A program made the position numbers and the translations under genes. From NCBI RefSeq assembly GCF_007754155.1, contig NZ_CP037423.1, positions 9,296,938 to 9,360,937 on the forward strand: a DNA stretch of 64,000 nt, written 5' to 3'. Shown here piece by piece: positions 4,446 through 46,440 of the stretch. The stretch comes from Stieleria neptunia (GTDB lineage Bacteria; Planctomycetota; Planctomycetia; Pirellulales; Pirellulaceae). The notes under the pieces were generated by a model. That model ran no database searches, had not been told where the DNA came from, and was given only the letters and a program-made list of their open reading frames with translations. Position 1 is the first letter of the stretch. Every line of letters begins with the position of its first letter.

Positions 4446-4491
4446 GTGGGTCGCGCGATCGAGTGGAATAAGAACTGCGGGGTTGCTGCTG

Positions 4492-4571
4492 CCACCCCAT
4501 CATTCTGCCACCCCATCATTCTGCCACCCCATCATTCTGCCACCCCATCATTCTGCCACCCCATCATTCTG
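4492..4571. repeat. 16-bp tandem repeat, 5 identical copies (CCACCCCATCATTCTG)
   Basis: Five identical copies run head to tail. The core CATCATTCTGCC resembles words used in other intergenic arrays of this window (CATTTTTCTGCC near 27.8 kb, CATCGTTCTGCG near 36.46 kb). Confidence 0.97.
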
Positions 4572-4576
4572 CCTTC

Positions 4577-4711
4577 TTATCGTTTTGCCCCCATCGTTTT
4601 GCCCCCATCGTTTTGCCCCCATCGTTTTGCCCCCATCGTTTTGCCCCCATCGTCTTGCCCCCATCGTCTTGCCCCCATCGTCTTGCCCCCATCGTCTTGC
4701 CCCCATCGTCC
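4577..4711. repeat. 14-bp tandem repeat, about 9.5 copies (ATCGTTTTGCCCCC)
   Basis: The first units read ATCGTTTTGCCCCC and the last four ATCGTCTTGCCCCC, so a point variant has spread through one end of the array. The array stops 4 bp before the ispH stop codon. The same word recurs as a short remnant near 36.48 kb. Confidence 0.97.
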
Positions 4712-25789: not shown

Positions 25790-27668
25790 ATGAAGACCAA
25801 CCAGACGTTCATCGGCGCCTACACACGCAACCGTCGTCGCACAGGCTTGCATCCCAACGACGCCCCCACGGCAATCGAGCCCACGGCAATCGAGCCCGCC
25901 GAGGCGATCGTCCCCGAGGAGGTCGCCCCAGAGCTTGCCAGCCAAGTCGTCGAGCAGCCGCACGCGTCCCCCCCTGCCTCCCATCTGCCCCCGACATCGG
26001 CGCCTGCACCGGCAGCGGCAGCGATCGATGAAACCGAGACCCTCGAAAAACTGCTCAGTCAATCGATTTCCGTGTCCGACACCTTCGTCGCAGCCAGTGA
26101 AATCTGGATCGATCAGCCCGCAGGCCAGGTGATGCGGATTGATCGTCCGCCGACACCGGCCCCCGCCCCGGAACCGATCGAACCTGTCCCAACCGTCGCG
26201 TCGGCCCAGCCGACTGCTCAAGCCCAGCCGACTGCTCAAGCCCAGCCGACTGCTCAAGCCCAGCCGACTGTTCAAGCTCAGCCAACTGTTCAAGCCCAAC
26301 CGACTGCTCAAGCCCAACCGACTGCTCAAGCCCAACCGACTGCTCAAGCTCAACCGACTGCTCAAGCTCAACCGACTGTTCAAGCTCAACCGACTGCTCA
26401 AGCTCAACCGACTGCTCAAGCCCAACCGACTGCTCAAGCCCAACCGACTGCTCAAGCCCAACCGACTGCTCAAGCTCAACCGACTGCTCAAGCTCAGCCA
26501 CCGCTCAGCGACTGCTCAAGCTCAGCCGACTGCTCAAGCTCAGCCGACTGCTCAAGCTCAGCCGACTGCTCAAGCTCAGCCACCTGCTCAAGCTCAGCCA
26601 ACAGCTCAAGCTCAGCCAACAGCTCAAGCTCAGCCAACTGCTCAAGCTCAGCCAACTGCTCAAGCTCAGCCAACTGCTCAAGCTCAGCCACCTGTTCAAG
26701 CTCAGCCAACTGCTCAAGTCCAGCCGCCTGCTCCGGCCGAACCGGCTGCCTGCGCCGAGTCCGCCGAGCAGACGGAATCGACTGCGGCTGCAGCCCCGAC
26801 CCAGCACGCGGCCGACGTTCGCGACGGGGAGACGATCACCCGAGAGCTCGACGCGTTGGTCGATGTGGTGGAGCAGCAAGCGAACGAGGAGTTTTTAAGC
26901 GACGCGAAAGCTGACGATCAGGCTCCCCAGAAGCCGAACACCATCGCCGAACCCGCATTCGTCGACAGCGCGACGGCCCCCGCCGTCGATCCGCCAGCGG
27001 ACGACATCGATTCAACCGCCCCACGCTGGGCCGGTGCGACTTGGGAAGTCGACGCGTTCGATCTCCCCTCCACCGTCGCAGACCTGTTCTTTGACGAAAC
27101 GTTTTTTCGCTCGATCGCCGAACACCTCGGCCAATCCGTGCGAGAAGGCCTGCGCAGCGTCCTGGTGACCAGTTTGAGTGCGGGCGAAGGACGCTCGACC
27201 GTTGCGATCGGCACTGCCATTGCCGCGGCAGCCACCGGCGTGCGCGTGGCCCTGATCGACATCGATCTGGACACGCCCAGCCAATCGGAACTGTTGCGTT
27301 TGGAAGTCGAAACCGATTGGGTGACCGCGATTCGTCAAGGCGAACGCATCGAGGATGCCGCGATCGCATCGATCGAAGACGGTGTGACACTGCTGCCGCT
27401 GGTGCTTTCCGGTCACCGAGGCTTGCCGATCACTCCGACAGAAATCGACCAACTGCTGGAACAACTCGACGGCTGTTTCGATCTGCTATTGTTCGACGGC
27501 CCCGTTGCGGGCGCCTGGGCGACGCCTCAAATTGCCGCCGCGGTCGACTCCAGCTTGATCGTCCGTGACGCCCGCCGAACCAGCCCCTCCGAAGTCGCCT
27601 CTGCCGCCGCCCAGCTCCGCCGCCAAGGCGTCGTGGGCATCGGCGTGGTTGATAATTTCTGCGGGTAG
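25790..27668 (+). pseudogene. Frameshifted gene: (QPTAQA)n repeat domain plus BY-kinase/CpsD-like ATPase
   Basis: From ATG 25790 the first frame encodes about 139 residues, then sixteen 18-bp units reading QPTAQA. At 26495-26522 one irregular 28-bp unit shifts the frame. Staying in the first frame gives a cysteine/serine-rich tail ending at 26914. In the other frame the QPTAQA pattern resumes for 11-12 units, then leads into about 310 residues ending in a MinD/CpsD-like ATPase up to 27668. That domain has the P-loop SLSAGEGRST, the Walker A' strand VALIDIDLDTPS and Walker B FDLLLFDGPV. The P-loop Lys is Arg. There is no Tyr-rich C-terminal tail. Joined, the product would be about 625 residues. 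BY-kinase-type ATPases usually control surface polysaccharide export. The break could be a true disabling mutation, a regulated frameshift or an assembly error in the repeat. Confidence 0.7.
26207..26738 (+). repeat. 18-bp in-gene tandem repeat, about 28 units, with one 28-bp irregular unit
   Basis: The unit CAGCCGACTGCTCAAGCT encodes QPTAQA. Sixteen units (26207-26494) are in one register, a 28-bp unit sits at 26495-26522, and 11-12 more units follow to 26738. Variants (CAACCG, ACTGTT, CCACCT) are clustered, as expected of recent local duplication. Confidence 0.97.
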
Positions 27669-27694: not shown

Positions 27695-27838
27695 GGCAGA
27701 AAAATAGTGGGCAGAAAAATGAAGAGACGGAGACAAGAAAATCGGTGACAAGAAAATAAATCACCGGCACCATTTTCTTGTCACCCATTTTCTTGTCTTT
27801 CCTTCCCCACCGATTTTCCTGCCCCCCATTTTTCTGCC
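27695..27838. repeat. Nested compound inverted array (GGCAGAAAAAT and GACAAGAAAAT words)
   Basis: Left arm: two GGCAGAAAAAT then two GACAAGAAAAT-type words. After a 13-bp centre, the right arm has two CATTTTCTTGTC then CCTGCC/CATTTTTCTGCC, the reverse complements in mirror order. The whole could fold into a stem of about 60 bp. It lies between two convergent genes and could terminate both. Confidence 0.93.
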
Positions 27839-30453: not shown

Positions 30454-30629
30454 AGTGGGATAGGCTTCCAGCCTGTCATCCCAGCCGGAAGCGTCACGGC
30501 CTGTCGATTGAGTGAGCCGCGACGCGTAAGCGGCCGGGCATTTCGGCGCCCGCCCGAGGCCTTACGGCCAGCGGCTCACCATTGACTCCGCAGATCCCAG
30601 TTCAATCGACAAGCTGGTCAGCGAGCGGC
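30454..30629. repeat. Half of the AGTGGGATAGG element plus interspersed repeat copy 2
   Basis: 30454-30478 carries AGTGGGATAGGCTTCCAG without its inverted partner. 30497-30629 is the second copy of the roughly 130-bp element at 16943, with the same GTGAGCCGC/GCGGCTCAC arms and the end TCAATCGACAAGCTGG. Together they fill most of the space between the kinase and sigma factor starts and may contain promoter elements. Confidence 0.9.
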
Positions 30630-30756
30630 GTGCAGTGAAAACACAGCCGTCACCCGCCACTGGCTCACGCCACGTGCTGGTGGGCGTCTTGCCACTTGGA
30701 TGAACGCAGACGTCTGACACCAAATTCCGAAAAAAGATTCGGTTACACTTTTCCCT

Positions 30757-31595: not shown

Positions 31596-32297
31596 GTGAT
31601 CCCCAACCGAGCGTCCGCCCTGATGCTAGCGATGACGGTCGCCGCGCTGACGCAACTCGGCTGCGCGCTGCCGACCGGGATCCTGCGTTCCCGCTGGGCG
31701 ATGGACGATCCCGAGTACGCCGAAAAATACTGTGACGGTGCGGAAAAGAGCGACGTGCTGGGCAAGCTCAAGCAGGCCTCCGACGCGAGATTCCAAGAAG
31801 ACGCCAGCGGCATGTTCGTCTCCAGCGGCGTCACCAAACGAAGCGATGCCGACGACGGCCTATTCACGGTCGACATCGGAGCGGAAATGTATGCGACCAG
31901 CTTCATGACGGCGCGGGCCTCCTTGATGGGCATGGGCAACGGCGATGACTGGTTCACCGGCGTGGACGCGGGGTTGCGACTGCAAACGCCCAGCCGACTG
32001 GCACCCTTCGTCGGCGCGGGCGTCTATGCGGGATACGCCAAAGAAGTGGTCTCCGCCGACGATGACTGGATCGACAACGACGACGACGGGTTCATCGACG
32101 AACGCGGCGAAGACAAGGAACGCTTCTCGGGCTCCCTGGCGGCGATCTATCCCGAAGTCGGCGCCCATTTTTGGTGGACACCCCGAATCCGCTTGACCAG
32201 CTACGGGCGATACATGGTCACCACCGAAGGCCGCGATGCCGATGACTGGCAAGCCGGCTTCGGTCTGGCCATCTTCACCAACCCCAACCTGCCCTAA
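31596..32297 (+). CDS. Small lipoprotein, probable beta-rich outer-membrane protein
   Basis: I do not recognise a named family for this 233-residue protein. A GTG start at 31596 gives a short basic N-terminus, a hydrophobic stretch and a lipobox TQLGC (Cys23). The rest alternates short aromatic/glycine strands (FTVDIGAEMYATSF, GVDAGLRLQTPS, FVGAGVYAGYA, GAHFWWTPRIRLTSYGRY, WQAGFGLAIF), which suggests a small beta-barrel. An acidic loop DDDWIDNDDDGFIDERGED could bind calcium. Its TAA stop is the first three bases of a repeat array. Confidence 0.7.
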   Translation: MIPNRASALMLAMTVAALTQLGCALPTGILRSRWAMDDPEYAEKYCDGAEKSDVLGKLKQASDARFQEDASGMFVSSGVTKRSDADDGLFTVDIGAEMYATSFMTARASLMGMGNGDDWFTGVDAGLRLQTPSRLAPFVGAGVYAGYAKEVVSADDDWIDNDDDGFIDERGEDKERFSGSLAAIYPEVGAHFWWTPRIRLTSYGRYMVTTEGRDADDWQAGFGLAIFTNPNLP

Positions 32298-32522
32298 CGT
32301 GGCGTAAGCTTCCAGCTTGCGACCCCATGGAACAGGCTTCCAGCCTAACGTGGCGTAAGCTTCCAGCTTGCGACCCCATGGAACAGGCTTCCTGCCCTAA
32401 CGTGGCGTAAGCTTCCAGCTTGCGACCCCGCGGAACAGGCTTCCAGCCTAACGTGGCGTAAGCTTCCAGCTTGCGATCCCGTGGAACAGGCTTCCAGCCG
32501 ACAGGCTGGAAGCCTATCCCAC
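32295..32522. repeat. Four direct copies of a 51-52 bp unit starting TAACGTGGCG
   Basis: Units start at 32295, 32346, 32398 and 32449, each reading TAACGTGGCGTAAGCTTCC then AACAGGCTTCC. The array ends with GGAAGCCTATCCCACC, half of the 17336 element. The first TAA is the stop codon of the preceding gene. A single unit of the same family starts at the stop codon of the VWA gene (60720). Confidence 0.95.
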
Positions 32523-34030: not shown

Positions 34031-34163
34031 GGTCAAAAAATGGGTGGGTCAAAAAATATCAGAAATCGTGCCAGCGGAGTTCTCGTCCCCTGAAATCCGT
34101 GGGTACGCTTTGCGATCCGTGGTCCTTTCCCCGCCATTTTTTGACCACCCCATTTTTTGACCA
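34031..34163. repeat. Compound inverted array (GGTCAAAAAAT x2 ... ATTTTTTGACC x2)
   Basis: Left words lie at 34031-34057 and right words at 34134-34163; the 75-bp centre contains ATCCGTGGGTACGC, shared with the element at 13825. Unlike the other arrays it sits between divergent genes, upstream of both sulfatases. Confidence 0.93.
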
Positions 34164-36260: not shown

Positions 36261-36589
36261 TCCACGGAACACGCAGTACACTGCAGCAGAGGGTGCGACC
36301 TGCTGCGATGACGATTGCAAATGGTTTGATTTTCGTCGACCGTTCGCCGGACTGGCAGCGTCCATGGATTGTGAGCGACCTGCGGGTCACCTTCAGCCGT
36401 AAAAGTTTTTGGGTGGCTTCTTTTGACCACAGAGTCGCGTTAACGAGGGAGTCGGAAGGCCATCGTTCTGCGAACTCATCGTTTTGCCCCCATTGTTTTG
36501 CCCGATGGGACCGACGAATCGTTCCGCCCACCAGTCGCAACGTCGACGACTTCACCGACTGGTGTTTTCGATTGGGCAGCTGTAATCCG
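36261..36589. other. Intergenic stretch with a degenerate repeat remnant
   Basis: No gene is supported in these 329 bp between convergent genes. At 36460-36503 there are decayed copies of the CATCGTTTTGCC word family (CATCGTTCTGCG, CATCGTTTTGCCCCC, CATTGTTTTGCCC), the same word as in the array near 4.6 kb. Confidence 0.7.
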
Positions 36590-37728: not shown

Positions 37729-38517
37729 ATGCCCATTTCATGCCCCTTGGCGATTCGCAGCCCGTCTTATCAAGAATTCAAAGCCTTGGACTACTGCAAG
37801 GTGATGCCCCAAGCATTCTGCACCCACAATTGCCTCGGCCCTCTGGCGGACGAATTCGTCTACAAAGCCGACTTTGCCGCCAGACTACGCGAATCCGGAC
37901 TGGACACGCAGATCGAGGTTCCGGTCTACGTGACCTTCGACACCTTTGAAAAACGCTACGTCCTAGACGCGGTCGTCGGGAAATGTGGTGTCTATGAACT
38001 CAAAGTGGCACGTGCCTTGACGCCGGAGCACGAAATGCAACTGCTGAACTATCTCTACCTGCTGGATATTGAACGCGGGAAACTCATCAACTTCAGGACA
38101 GATCGAGTGGAATGTCAATTTGTCAATTCGGGGACGACTCGATCACAACGTCAGAGCTTCGCTATCGATGGAATTCGCTGGTGCGACGAATCACCGTTGA
38201 GACGCCTGTGTATCGACATTCTCCGAGATTGGGGGACCGGCCTGAGCCTGCCCTTGTACTACCAGGCGTTGACACATTTGCTCGGCGGTGAAGAGCGTGT
38301 GGTGAAACAGGTTCCAATGAATCGCGATGGATTGCCACTGGGAAGGCAACGGTTCCATGTCCTGAGCAATCGGTCGGCGTTTGAGGTGACGGCGTTGCTG
38401 AACGGTCATCGCCAGTACGAACAGAATTTGCGTAAGCTACTTCGCCATAGTCCGTTCGAGGCGATTCACTGGATCAATATTTCGCTTAAAGAGGTTCGGT
38501 TTGTGACGGTGGTTTGA
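37729..38517 (+). CDS. GxxExxY-type PD-(D/E)XK-fold protein with extra C-terminal domain
   Basis: Residues about 30-140 of this 262-residue protein follow the GxxExxY family: CLGPLADEFVYKADFAARL (a degenerate form of the name motif), then TQIEVPVYVTFD, VLDAVVGKCGVYELKVA and HEMQLLNYLYLLDIERGKLINF. The Asp of VLDAVV and the Glu-Leu-Lys fit a PD-(D/E)XK nuclease core. Typical members are about 125-170 residues, so the last 120 residues (including PFEAIHWINISL) are an extension I do not recognise. Its codon use and lower GC resemble a later arrival, though this is only an impression. A large repeat block follows directly. Confidence 0.75.
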   Translation: MPISCPLAIRSPSYQEFKALDYCKVMPQAFCTHNCLGPLADEFVYKADFAARLRESGLDTQIEVPVYVTFDTFEKRYVLDAVVGKCGVYELKVARALTPEHEMQLLNYLYLLDIERGKLINFRTDRVECQFVNSGTTRSQRQSFAIDGIRWCDESPLRRLCIDILRDWGTGLSLPLYYQALTHLLGGEERVVKQVPMNRDGLPLGRQRFHVLSNRSAFEVTALLNGHRQYEQNLRKLLRHSPFEAIHWINISLKEVRFVTVV

Positions 38518-38518
38518 A

Positions 38519-38603
38519 GGTTTGGTGGAGAGGTTTGGTGGAGAGGTTTGGTGGAGAGGTTTGGTGGAGAGGTTTGGTGGAGAGGTTTGGTGGAGAGGTT
38601 TGG
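38519..38603. repeat. 13-bp tandem repeat, 6 copies plus a partial (TTTGGTGGAGAGG)
   Basis: The array starts 2 bp after the GxxExxY gene stop. Its seventh unit (TTTGGTC) runs straight into the GGTCAAAAAAT array. Confidence 0.96.
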
Positions 38604-38845
38604 TCAAAAAATTTAGTGGTCAAAAAATAAGAAAGAACAGGGCAGTACGTTCATGGAAAATCACTCGCCCATTTTTTGACCAACTCATTTTTTGACCAAC
38701 TCATTTTTTGACCAACTCATTTTTTGACCAACTCATTTTTTGACCAACCCATTTTTTGACCAACCCATTTTTTGACCAACCCATTTTTTGACCAACCCAT
38801 TTTTTGACCAACCCATTTTTTGACCAACCCATTTTTTGACCAACC
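38602..38845. repeat. Compound inverted array: 2 x GGTCAAAAAAT facing 11 x 16-bp CATTTTTTGACCAAC(T/C)
   Basis: The left arm at 38602-38628 has two GGTCAAAAAAT words. After a 41-bp spacer, eleven 16-bp units run from 38670 to 38845; the first four end in ACT and the rest in ACC. The right arm has expanded relative to the left. The array ends 5 bp before the arsM-type gene's stop codon, between convergent genes. Confidence 0.96.
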
Positions 38846-41151: not shown

Positions 41152-42750
41152 GTGTGTGCAACCGCCAGCCCGGAATCGCCGCCGAATCCGCCCGCGATCA
41201 AGAACTTTCTGCCAGCGACCGGCGTAGCAGTCGCGAGACAGGTACACCAGGCACCTTTACCGAGCACCTTTACCGAATCGACCAAATTGTCTTTGCCGCG
41301 CAAAATCGGGCTCTTCTTGCTCATCGGATTGCTGATCGCCAAAGTGGTCGGTGTTGTGATGCGCGGCCCCAGTCCGATGGTGCTTGACGCCGGGTTCTAT
41401 TGGGAATTGGGCGGCTTGGTCGCCGACGGCGATTGGCTGTTGATGCAACGCCCGATCGCTTACCGAACACCGGCCTACCCGTGGCTGATCGGTTTGTTCC
41501 GCGCCGTTTCCAGCGATCCGCTGTTCGCCCTGGTTGTCTTCCAAGGTGTGCTCTGGATGGCCACGATCGGATTGATCGCGGCGCTTGCGTCGGAGATTTC
41601 GCGAGACCGGCGTGTCGTGTGGGTCGTCGTGGCCCTGGCGATCCCGATGCTCTGCTCGGCCGTGTATGTCACGACGGTGCTGACCGAAACGCTGTTCGTT
41701 TTTTCGATCGTCCTGCATCTATGGTCGGTCGCTCGGTTCACCCGCCGGCCGACGGTGGCGGGCGGGTTGATGGTCGGATTGACACTCGGGTTGGCAATCC
41801 TGACGCGTCCGGTGGCGATGTTGGTGTGGATCGCCGACCTGATTTATGTCATCACCAGTTGGTACTGGATTGCCAATCCGGCGACGCAGCACCTGTGCCA
41901 TCGGCGTGGTTGGATCGGTGTCCTGTTGGCGGGAATCGTCACGGTCGGCTGTGTCAGTCCCTGGCTGGCCCGCAATCACGCCCTGTTCGGCAAAGCAATG
42001 CTGACCGAATTCGTCGGACGCAACCTCTGGATCGTCACCTTCCAGGACGGCAGCGGCGCCGGATTGGGGTTGCCCGAATCCGCCGGTGCTGCGCGGCTGA
42101 AGACACAGTTGGGAGACGACGTGTGGGGCAATCTGTCGGTCGACCAGAGTTGGCGACATACCTGGACCGTCTCCAACGCACTGACCACGTCGGGGATGGA
42201 CGACCCCTCGGCAGACCGATTGATGAAACGCGTGGCGACCGAGGCGATCGCGGAGTCACCGTTGCCGTTCGGAATAAAAACACTGCGTCGGCTGATCAAC
42301 TTTTGGCGCACACGGGCGACACAGATCCCGGCTCAACTGGCGGATCTGGCAGCGGACGAAACCGTGACGCGTGAAACGTTGTCACAGGAGTTTTATGTCG
42401 GACAGCCGGTCTGGGGCGTTAAAGTCCCACCTGTCGATACAGCCCTCCGCCATCGATGGAGCAATTGGCTGGCCGGCAACACGTTGTTGATGTTGGCGAC
42501 GCTCGCTGCAACGATGCTGCTGATCTGGCGGCGTCCCACACGCGCCGCCGGCCTGTGGCTGGGAGCGATCCTCGGCTATTTTGCCACGGTGACCGCGGTA
42601 CTGGAGATTCCCGCGTACCGCTACCGGATGATCGTCGAGCCGGTTGTCCTGCTGGTGATCGTGCTGGCAATCGTCTCGATTTCGGCTTGCGATGGGGGGT
42701 TGAAAGTTTGGCGGGGTGTTTGGTCAAAAAATTTATTGGTCAAAAAATAA
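41152..42750 (+). CDS. Polytopic glycosyltransferase-like membrane protein (GT39/ArnT-like)
   Basis: The protein has up to 532 residues and about ten membrane helices. An early lumenal loop contains DAGFYWELGGLVADGDWL and RPIAYRTPAYPWLIGLFR, the Asp and Arg/Pro-rich pattern of GT39-type enzymes that use lipid-linked sugar donors. The start is uncertain: a GTG at 41152 fits the frame, but a TTG near 41287 would place the first helix closer to the N-terminus. The last residues (VWSKNLLVKK) and the stop codon are encoded by an intergenic repeat array that has run into the gene, so the native C-terminus may have been altered. It precedes a GT2 gene by 111 bp. Confidence 0.75.
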   Translation: MCATASPESPPNPPAIKNFLPATGVAVARQVHQAPLPSTFTESTKLSLPRKIGLFLLIGLLIAKVVGVVMRGPSPMVLDAGFYWELGGLVADGDWLLMQRPIAYRTPAYPWLIGLFRAVSSDPLFALVVFQGVLWMATIGLIAALASEISRDRRVVWVVVALAIPMLCSAVYVTTVLTETLFVFSIVLHLWSVARFTRRPTVAGGLMVGLTLGLAILTRPVAMLVWIADLIYVITSWYWIANPATQHLCHRRGWIGVLLAGIVTVGCVSPWLARNHALFGKAMLTEFVGRNLWIVTFQDGSGAGLGLPESAGAARLKTQLGDDVWGNLSVDQSWRHTWTVSNALTTSGMDDPSADRLMKRVATEAIAESPLPFGIKTLRRLINFWRTRATQIPAQLADLAADETVTRETLSQEFYVGQPVWGVKVPPVDTALRHRWSNWLAGNTLLMLATLAATMLLIWRRPTRAAGLWLGAILGYFATVTAVLEIPAYRYRMIVEPVVLLVIVLAIVSISACDGGLKVWRGVWSKNLLVKK

Positions 42751-42820
42751 GAGAGAACGAGGAAGAAATCTCATCAAACTCTAACCCACTCATCTTTTGA
42801 CCCACTCATCTTTTGACCCA
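42722..42820. repeat. Compound inverted array overlapping a gene's 3' end (GGTCAAAAAAT ... CATCTTTTGACCCA)
   Basis: Left words GGTCAAAAAATTTATTGG and GGTCAAAAAATAAG (42722-42751) are nearly the same as 38602-38631. The right arm (42791-42820) has two CATCTTTTGACCCACT-type words, so the inverted match to the left arm has partly diverged. Confidence 0.93.
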
Positions 42821-44837: not shown

Positions 44838-46261
44838 ACCACCCTACCCTGCACCACTGGATCGACGGCCAGCACCACGCCGCGTCGTCCGCCCGCAGTT
44901 TCCAATCGCTCAACCCCGAAGACGACTCGGTGATCGCGACGGCACCCCGTGGCGACGCCGGCGATGTCGCGTTGGCGGTCGATTCAGCCGCCAAGGCGTT
45001 CGAGCGTTTTCAAGAGCTGGGGCCGTCGCAGCGTGAAGCCATCTTGCTGCGGGCGGCGGACCTGTTGGAACAGCGATCGGCAGACTTTCGCGATTTATTG
45101 ATTCGCGAAATCGGATCGCCCTTGGGCAAAGCGTCGATGGAAATCGGGATCGCGACCCGAGTGTTAAAAGCCAACGCGGCGATGGCCCGACGGATGACCG
45201 GGCGCACGTATTCGAGTGACGTTCCGGGCCGCTGGAGTCTGGGGTTTCGAAAACCGCTCGGCGTCGTCGCCTCGATCACCCCGTTCAACGTCCCGCTGAT
45301 CAAGGGCATCAAACACAGCAGCATGCCGTTGGCGACGGGCAACACCGTCGTCTGGCTGCCATCGGAACAGACGCCGATGATCGCCGCCGCGATCGCCCAG
45401 CTGTACCACGACGCGGGGCTGCCCGCCGGGGCGTTGAACATGGTGCTGGGGATCGGCGCAGAGATCGGGGACGACTTGGTCAGCGCCCCGCGGATCGACG
45501 CGGTCAGTTTCACCGGCTCGGCGGCCGTCGGACGGCGGGTGCAATCGCTGTGCGGCCGTCACGGAAAACGGGTCACGTTGGAACTCGGTGGCAAGAACCC
45601 GCTGATCGTGCTCGACGACGCGAACCTGGACGCCGCGGTCGCTGCGGCGGTGCGCGGCGGGTTCATTTACCAGGGCCAGATCTGCATGGCATCCAGCCGC
45701 GTGATCGTCGACCAATCCCTGGCACAGGCGTTCACGGAGCGTTTTGTCGCCGCGTCAGGGTCACTGGGCATGGGAGCGTTGACGGATCCGAAAACGATGA
45801 TCGGACCGATCATCACGGCGAAAGCCCGCCAACGGATACGCGATCATCTGGCCGATGCGGTCGCTGGCGGGGCAAACCTCTTGTGCGGAAATCGGTGGAC
45901 AAACAATCGAGTGAACCCCACGATCGTTTCCGGTGTCACGTCTGCCATGAAGCTGTTTCGCGAAGAAACCTTCGGGCCGGTCGTCTCGATCGAGACTGCC
46001 CAGGACCGCCAGCACGCATTGCAACTCGCCAATGCCTCCCCCGGCATGCTCGCCGCAGCCGTCTTCACCTCGGATCTCGATGCGGTGATGACGTTCGCAG
46101 ATTCTTTGGGCACTGCGATGGTTCACGTCAACGACATGACGATCCAGCAAGAACCCGAAGTCCCGTTCGGAGGCGACGGGCAAGCGGGCTTCGGCCGCGA
46201 AGGCATGGAGACGGGGATCGAAGACTTCACGACCTGGAAATGGGTCACGCTTCGGAACTGA
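44834..46261 (+). CDS. Aldehyde dehydrogenase family protein
   Basis: This NAD(P)-dependent aldehyde dehydrogenase has 475 residues if translated from the TTG at 44834, which overlaps the methyltransferase stop (TTGA). That start places HHWIDGQHHAASSARSFQSLNPEDDSV at the beginning, as expected for the family. Catalytic residues are visible: Glu250 in TLELGGKNP and Cys284 in GQICMASSR. It most resembles benzaldehyde/vanillin dehydrogenase-type members. In context it may oxidise an aldehyde on a glycan or lipid product of the operon, but a general detoxification role is equally possible. Its stop codon directly precedes a repeat array. Confidence 0.9.
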   Translation: MNHPTLHHWIDGQHHAASSARSFQSLNPEDDSVIATAPRGDAGDVALAVDSAAKAFERFQELGPSQREAILLRAADLLEQRSADFRDLLIREIGSPLGKASMEIGIATRVLKANAAMARRMTGRTYSSDVPGRWSLGFRKPLGVVASITPFNVPLIKGIKHSSMPLATGNTVVWLPSEQTPMIAAAIAQLYHDAGLPAGALNMVLGIGAEIGDDLVSAPRIDAVSFTGSAAVGRRVQSLCGRHGKRVTLELGGKNPLIVLDDANLDAAVAAAVRGGFIYQGQICMASSRVIVDQSLAQAFTERFVAASGSLGMGALTDPKTMIGPIITAKARQRIRDHLADAVAGGANLLCGNRWTNNRVNPTIVSGVTSAMKLFREETFGPVVSIETAQDRQHALQLANASPGMLAAAVFTSDLDAVMTFADSLGTAMVHVNDMTIQQEPEVPFGGDGQAGFGREGMETGIEDFTTWKWVTLRN

Positions 46262-46440
46262 AGTTTCAAGTTTCAAGTTTCAAGTTCCAAGTTTGGGATT
46301 TGACGTAGTGCCTGGAACTTGAAACTTGAAACGCGCAACTTGAAACCCAAACGCCTGGAACTTGAAACTTGAAACCCGCAACTTGAAACCCAAACGCCTG
46401 GAACTTGAAACCCGCAACTTACAACAAACAACTTACAACG
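46262..46440. repeat. Inverted heptamer array (AAGTTTC x3-4 facing GAAACTT tandem units)
   Basis: The left arm reads AAGTTTCAAGTTTC and so on, directly after the aldehyde dehydrogenase stop. From about 46310 a 43-bp unit containing CTTGAAACTTGAAAC and GCCTGG repeats about 2.5 times. The arms are inverted complements, so the layout matches the other compound arrays although the word differs. It precedes rnr. Confidence 0.95.

What the first reader, a model, noticed from the sequence alone, without database searches (positions are those of the whole stretch)
38602..38845. Compound inverted micro-repeat arrays: a family of intergenic elements
Here two GGTCAAAAAAT words face eleven 16-bp CATTTTTTGACC units. 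The same plan (tandem words, spacer, reverse-complement tandem words) recurs with related words at 27695, 34031 and 42722, and with a different word at 46262. The words share the form CAT-n-TTTT-n-TGNCC. The matching architecture with changing words suggests a common generating process or a shared RNA-hairpin function, not chance microsatellites.
Basis: partly seen in the sequence, partly recalled or inferred. Interest (0 to 1): 0.75.

Follow-up and report, generated by a model that had tools for sequence, protein, structure and literature searches.

The report
Nuclease-linked inverted word arrays in Pirellulaceae
Short repeated DNA words that face each other between the genes of a planctomycete belong to a two-part system in which each word comes with its own nuclease gene, which looks like a new, unrelated counterpart of the known REPIN-RAYT repeat systems.

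Summary
The arrays are real and far above chance. CATTTTTTGACC occurs 31+20 times in the 10.98-Mb genome against 0+0 for the reversed word. In an even 1.2-Mb sample 17 same-word inverted pairs point inwards and 0 outwards. The commonest plan is two words facing two. The key is the gene beside the focal array, window 37729-38517: a 262-aa GxxExxY (PDDEXK_3) protein with a conserved D..ExK..QxxxY core and a Cas4-like fold. In the genus, 22 of 22 such long-type genes or fragments (7 loci) lie within 400 bp of words. The word follows the protein clade. At three shared loci gene and words differ together between species: A/B, C/D, E/F. Elsewhere in the family, 37 of 55 genes pass an automatic test and 15 more show words by eye. 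Protein distance predicts word distance (0 of 5000 permutations). I read this as a REPIN-RAYT-like system built on an unrelated PD-(D/E)XK nuclease. Word binding, cutting and mobility are inferred. An RNA-hairpin role is not supported: variants on facing arms do not match.

The parts
37729..38517 (+). Long-type GxxExxY / PDDEXK_3 gene (262 aa), proposed cognate nuclease of word A; D80, E90, K92, Q104, Y108 conserved
   Evidence: Pfam PF13366 E 7.8e-20, TIGR04256 E 3.5e-19, alignments, model pLDDT 97.5
38518..38604 (+). 13-bp AGGTTTGGTGGAG tandem repeat (6.7 copies) between the gene's stop and the left arm
   Evidence: similar repeats in G006, shorter in G009
38602..38628 (+). Left arm of focal array: two A words GGTCAAAAAAT (38602, 38618)
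38629..38667 (.). Spacer of the focal array
   Evidence: similar spacer in the A5 array of relatives
38668..38845 (-). Right arm: eleven A words in reverse, period 16 (11 in G000, fewer in G006, 2 in G009)
34031..34162 (.). A2: A array, 2 words facing 2, gene-less; arms kept nearly intact in 5 close relatives and recognisable in G010 while the spacer differs
42722..42818 (.). A5: A array, 2 facing 2; also in G004, G006, G008, G009; no array seen at this site in G005, G010, G012, G007, G003, G001, G013
27695..27838 (.). A1: nested array, F words GGCAGAAAAAT outside, E words GACAAGAAAAT inside
   Evidence: E words inside F words also at the E gene G000:C1:4336051
36477..36503 (-). Lone right-arm C words CATCGTTTTGCC; C/D arrays at this site in G004, G005, G006
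4489..4709 (-). Lone right-arm arrays of D-type and C-type words

Best explanation
The arrays are one half of a two-part system. The other half is a family of about 262-aa PD-(D/E)XK proteins (long-type GxxExxY; N-terminal Cas4/RecB-like nuclease domain plus a C-terminal domain that may be a second, inactive nuclease-like fold). Each protein clade goes with its own 11-bp word of the general form G[GA][CT]A[GA][AG]AA[AG]AT. Words come mostly in tandem pairs that face their reverse complements across a spacer. SHOWN: the arrays; gene-array linkage across the family; word-clade co-segregation; joint difference of gene and words at shared loci; purifying selection on the protein; shared spacers between some dispersed D units of one genome. 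INFERRED: the protein binds its word pairs, probably when the inverted arms are brought together (cruciform or single-stranded hairpin), cuts there, and repair copies or homogenises the array, so gene-less arrays persist and spread slowly as dependants of a gene that itself is mostly inherited in place. This works like REPIN-RAYT with an unrelated enzyme. Local word number changes by tandem slippage.
For: Linkage: 22 of 22 long-type genes/fragments in the genus (7 loci) have words within 400 bp, against 23 of 2000 random G000 windows with an inverted same-word pair and 70 of 2000 with two or more words. Outside the genus 37 of 55 pass an 8-mer test against 39 of 500 random, and 15 of the remaining 18 show words by eye, without a control; hairpin score next to the gene 50 against 27.5 farther out in the same loci, p 1.6e-9. 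The two genes found in other planctomycete families also have words by eye. Specificity: 8 words, 7 changes on the tree of 19 proteins, the minimum, shuffled mean 12.4, 0 of 200; Mantel r 0.35, and 0.31 with proteins under 70% identity, 0 of 5000 each. Three loci with joint gene and word difference. Genomes with a D-word gene: 4 of 4 have exact D inverted pairs, others 9 of 237 (the G162 gene's word scored below my later cut-off; without it 3 of 3 and 10 of 238); B: 6 of 7 against 2 of 234. dN/dS 0.06-0.28 in 17 comparisons. Copied units: 11 same-genome pairs among 27 D arrays share spacers above the shuffled maximum.
Against: No binding, cutting or movement was observed. No clean empty site with a target duplication: one candidate (A6, near-duplicate GAATTCAGAA/GAACTCAGAA) and no clean case in the 9 of 11 B arrays for which I could compare an orthologous place. 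A-array spacers are almost all unique (10 sharing pairs among 76 arrays, 3 of them within one genome), so A units show little recent copying. Within the genus, A and D array counts do not follow presence of the cognate gene; the Fisher tests ignore phylogeny. Some gene copies are broken (G005 B copy with a TGA, G006 F copy with a TAA, G004 E copy) while arrays persist. Random control windows are from G000 only.
Confidence: 0.62

Rival explanations
1. The words are operators or self-recognition sites of the nuclease gene (autoregulation, or sites that tame or guide a host-serving nuclease); dispersed arrays are a chromosomal binding-site network kept by selection, not mobile copies.
For: Gene and words co-vary; the gene is mostly at conserved loci and under purifying selection; A2 words stay nearly intact in six genomes while the spacer is replaced; A spacers are mostly unique.
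Against: D spacers are shared between loci of one genome and a ~190-bp B unit is repeated in tandem around its gene, which is copying; arrays sit beside unrelated genes; B arrays in a relative without a B gene are often decayed or replaced (biased by choosing intact arrays).
Confidence: 0.22
2. Bidirectional transcription terminators (RNA hairpins) that happened to diversify; the nuclease genes are bystanders.
For: Intergenic (0 of 22 sample and window arrays, 4 of 95 in the named relatives inside predicted genes); 8 of 18 placed sample and window arrays lie between convergent genes, which hold 19% of intergenic bases, and 25 of 68 against 28% in the named relatives; predicted hairpins.
Against: No matching variants on pairing arm positions in 48 arrays; tight linkage to one protein family and word-clade co-segregation are unexplained; arrays also lie between divergent and co-directional genes.
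Confidence: 0.07
3. Purely mutational: hairpin-templated slippage in intergenic DNA builds inverted tandem words anywhere.
For: Copy number varies between relatives (11, fewer, 2 right words at the focal site); neighbouring right-arm words vary together (p 5e-5); other inverted tandem words exist (46262; L193).
Against: The same words recur at unlinked loci and in other genera with the cognate gene; slippage gives no reason for linkage to one nuclease family.
Confidence: 0.05
4. Known REP/RAYT or TIRYT elements of the genome (Y1 tyrosine transposase) make the arrays.
For: The genome has 8 Y1_Tnp matches and other palindromic repeats; at one of the 8 (L199) two degenerate A-like words lie just beyond the gene's inverted repeat.
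Against: The other 7 Y1_Tnp loci show none of the words by eye; of the 8, one passes the 8-mer test, with another repeat; the linked gene has no Y1_Tnp match.
Confidence: 0.04

Closest known systems
REPINs and RAYTs (REP-associated tyrosine transposases)
   Same: Dispersed intergenic inverted doublets with variable spacer and conserved arms; a low-copy, mostly in-place-inherited enzyme gene flanked by its cognate repeats (passages of PMC3116915, PMC8049555, PMC3733652 seen)
   Different: Enzyme is a PD-(D/E)XK (GxxExxY) protein, not an HUH/Y1 transposase; no general GTAG foot (39 of 43 representative words lack it); each half is typically two tandem words rather than one imperfect palindrome (the latter recalled); dissemination not shown
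TIRYTs/TIRtrons (TIR-associated tyrosine transposases)
   Same: Enzyme gene flanked by its own inverted repeats, some of them repeated in the genome; tyrosine transposase genes with flanking repeats are named for R. baltica (passages of PMC3733652)
   Different: Enzyme class; words
GxxExxY protein family (TIGR04256 / PF13366)
   Same: The gene is a member above both cut-offs
   Different: 262-aa form with a conserved C-terminal domain; arrays not seen by eye at the three short-type genes of this genome (one of 3 passes the 8-mer test with a different word)
Cas4 / RecB-like nucleases
   Different: Arrays are inverted word pairs, not direct repeats with spacers; among the 10 window ORFs scanned only the focal gene has a (weak) Cas hit
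MITEs
   Same: Gene-less short elements with inverted ends beside gene-bearing copies
   Different: No proven target duplication; A-type interiors mostly not shared between copies

Membership tests
REPIN-RAYT | Y1/HUH tyrosine transposase as the linked enzyme | tested here: not met
   Pfam hits of the linked gene are PDDEXK_3 and a weak Cas_Cas4, no Y1_Tnp
REPIN-RAYT | GTAG tetranucleotide at the repeat foot | tested here: not met
   39 of 43 representative automatic words lack GTAG; the 4 B-type words (GGTAGGAARAT) contain those letters inside
REPIN-RAYT | Inverted doublets with variable spacer, extragenic | tested here: met
   17 inward, 0 outward in the sample; 0 of 22 arrays in predicted genes
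REPIN-RAYT | Low-copy enzyme gene inherited in place and flanked by cognate repeats | tested here: met
   1-4 long-type genes per carrier genome of the genus, three loci shared between species, 22 of 22 beside words
REPIN-RAYT | Enzyme-dependent duplication of the repeats | not testable with these tools
   Only indirect: shared D spacers within genomes
GxxExxY (TIGR04256/PF13366) | Profile score above curated cut-off | tested here: met
   69.3 vs 35 bits; 71.8 vs 22 bits
PD-(D/E)XK nuclease, Cas4/RecB-like | D..ExK core plus QxxxY and the fold | tested here: met
MITE / insertion sequence | Target-site duplication at insertions | tested here: inconclusive
   One 10-bp near-duplicate at A6; no clean empty site in the 9 of 11 B arrays compared
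CRISPR array | Direct repeats separated by unique spacers | tested here: not met
   Repeats are inverted word pairs across the spacer
Intrinsic terminator | RNA 3' ends at the element | not testable with these tools
   No RNA data; the terminator scan tool was not run

The most novel reading that the evidence does not exclude
A new class of selfish or commensal repeat system: a pseudo-dimeric PD-(D/E)XK nuclease (one active and one inactive nuclease-like half) that recognises clade-specific 11-bp words arranged as facing tandem pairs, cuts the extruded hairpin, and through repair spreads and homogenises gene-less arrays across the chromosome, with new word specificities arising by paired divergence of enzyme and words.
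Probability: 0.4. Interest if true: 0.9.

Novelty: new variant of a known kind. Interest (0 to 1): 0.8.

Why it matters
It links an uncharacterised annotated protein family (GxxExxY) to a concrete DNA target and gives many natural enzyme-word pairs that can be tested at once. If the enzyme maintains its arrays, the REPIN-RAYT way of life has arisen at least twice with unrelated enzymes. It also gives planctomycete genome annotators a rule for calling many intergenic repeats.

Full report
WHERE. The window is G000:C1:9296938-9360937 of a 10,975,817-base single-contig genome. A scan of named genomes for the tandem A word found 106 stretches; the 80 listed are all Stieleria, Rhodopirellula sp. 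SM50, Rhodopirellula sp. JC639 or TBK1r, so I take the genus to be the Stieleria clade of Pirellulaceae. G005 is probably S. maiorica Mal15, from its contig length and the source names of P0010 and P0012.

OBSERVATION. The commonest plan is two direct words, a spacer, and two reverse words: 9 of 17 inverted pairs in the even sample are 2+2, and 42 of 89 in the A-selected named relatives. Pairs point inwards 17:0 in the sample, 5:0 in the window and 89:3 (1 mixed) in the named relatives, which were chosen for tandem A words. Eight words were scanned: A GGTCAAAAAAT, B GGTAGGAAAAT, C GGCAAAACGAT, D GGCAGAATGAT, E GACAAGAAAAT, F GGCAGAAAAAT, G GGCAGGCGAAT, H GGCAGAGGAAT. Of 22 two-sided arrays in the sample and window none lies inside a predicted gene (home-made gene finder), against 4 of 95 in the named relatives; of 18 that could be placed 8 are between convergent genes, which hold 19% of intergenic bases.

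THE GENE. The ORF ending just before the focal array, 37729-38517, is a GxxExxY / PDDEXK_3 protein. G000 has 8 PF13366 matches; four belong to a longer type of 262-266 aa with a conserved C-terminal part. Each of the four lies in or beside an array of a different word: A (focal), B (tandem ~190-bp units around the gene), C, and E inside F. In the E case the gene lies between E arms, with F words outside on one side, so the gene-less nested E/F arrays (window 27695; L164 and L156, which keep only part of the right side) look like the same element without the gene. In the genus the long type is found at E below 1e-50 in 7 of 14 genomes (G000, G004, G005, G006, G008, G009, G010), 20 matches; two C-terminal fragments in G008 and G009 make 22 genes or fragments at 7 loci. 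All 22 have words within 400 bp. G010 has the B word next to its gene and an A2 array but scored 0 for the tandem A pattern.

WORD AND PROTEIN GO TOGETHER. On the tree of 19 proteins the eight words need 7 changes, the minimum, against a shuffled mean of 12.4 (0 of 200 as low); the five B rows alone need 2. At three loci shared between species the occupant differs: focal locus A in G000, G006, G009 and B in G004, G005, G008 (about 57% identical proteins); the 9290 locus C in five genomes and D in G004 (about 60%); the 4336 locus E in four (two of them fragments and one broken) and F in two (about 47%). The words next to the gene differ with the protein each time. Outside the genus, 41 further genomes of the family carry the gene: 48 of 241 searched in all, 22 of 68 genera. 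I had all 55 of their genes or fragments as loci; 37 pass a tandem-plus-inverted 8-mer test against 39 of 500 random G000 positions. Of the other 18, 15 show words by eye (two of them tandem only) and 3 do not: one at a contig edge and two gene fragments. A test without word choice, the best self-complementary alignment in the flanks, gives a median of 50 next to the gene (n 55) and 27.5 at 800-1150 bp (n 40), p 1.6e-9. Across 56 of 70 near-full proteins with a scoring word, protein distance and word mismatch correlate (r 0.35; 0 of 5000 permutations); with 43 proteins under 70% identity r is 0.31, again 0 of 5000. Word positions 1, 10 and 11 were imposed by my search; the others were free. 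In an even draw of 392 genomes of the phylum only G304 and G384 outside the family had the gene; both have words beside it by eye.

DISPERSED ARRAYS. Exact D inverted pairs occur in 13 of 241 genomes, control 0 in all: in 4 of 4 with a D-word gene (G004, G162, G180, G181; the G162 word scored low) and 9 of 237 without. Exact B pairs occur in 8 of 241: in 6 of 7 with a B-word gene and 2 of 234 without; G000, which has a B gene, scored 0 within the 20-50 base spacing. These Fisher values (5e-6, 8e-10) are not corrected for kinship, and inside the genus only B follows the gene. Among 27 D arrays of four genomes, 11 same-genome pairs share spacers above the shuffled maximum, and B units at unrelated places in G005 share their spacer by eye. 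A spacers are nearly all unique (10 sharing pairs among 76 arrays, 3 within one genome), so A is old or spreads otherwise. At A2 the words are almost intact in six genomes and recognisable in G010 while the spacer is replaced, which points to constraint or homogenisation on words. Matching variants between pairing arms are absent in 48 arrays, while neighbouring right words vary together: words look like separately read sites that spread within an arm by slippage. At A6, G004 and G006 carry an A array together with a stretch like the 3' end of the A gene, where G005 has none; the flanks show a 10-bp near-duplicate.

MECHANISM. Best reading: the protein reads its word pairs, cuts at arrays, and repair copies or tidies them; gene-less arrays live on this. 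The first three links (arrays, linkage, specificity by co-variation) are shown; binding, cutting and copying by the enzyme are inferred. It works like REPIN-RAYT but is not a member, since the enzyme class was tested and not met and 39 of 43 words lack the GTAG tag.

Noticed in passing
window 46261-46411: A 7-bp AAGTTTC / GAAACTT inverted tandem array of unlike word, also at the same site in G008 and G009; a GTTTCAGG array at L193:8590-8672. No cognate gene found.
   Followed up: partly
L235, L238, L241, L244 and relatives (4336 locus: L237, L238, L241-L244): By their flanks the E/F genes lie in opposite orientation in G004 and G005 compared with G000, G006, G008 and G009 (by eye), as recombination between facing arms would produce.
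   Followed up: no
window 30477-30630: A repeat of about 120-150 bp with many matches in G000 and relatives (capped list).
   Followed up: no
window 32293-32499: 51-bp repeat (GGCGTAAGCTTCCAGCTTGCGAC type); related 10-mers are among the most over-represented in the sample.
   Followed up: no
window 26207-26733: 18-bp repeat, 29.7 copies, inside the ORF whose C-terminal part matches ParA-like ATPases (26139-27668).
   Followed up: no
L199, L201 (Y1_Tnp genes), L170:16562, L183:7601: Y1_Tnp genes and dispersed hairpins with AAAAGGGGTCAGG-type ends, which look like the published TIRYT/TIRtron kind (likeness recalled, then compared with passages of PMC3733652).
   Followed up: partly
L246 (G000:C1:9978001-9994000), L226: The B-word gene sits in a tandem row of ~190-bp units, each with a B array, a local amplification worth a separate look.
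   Followed up: partly
L319, L324, L325, L332, L337: B arrays followed downstream by D left-arm words, so units of two word types may travel together.
   Followed up: no
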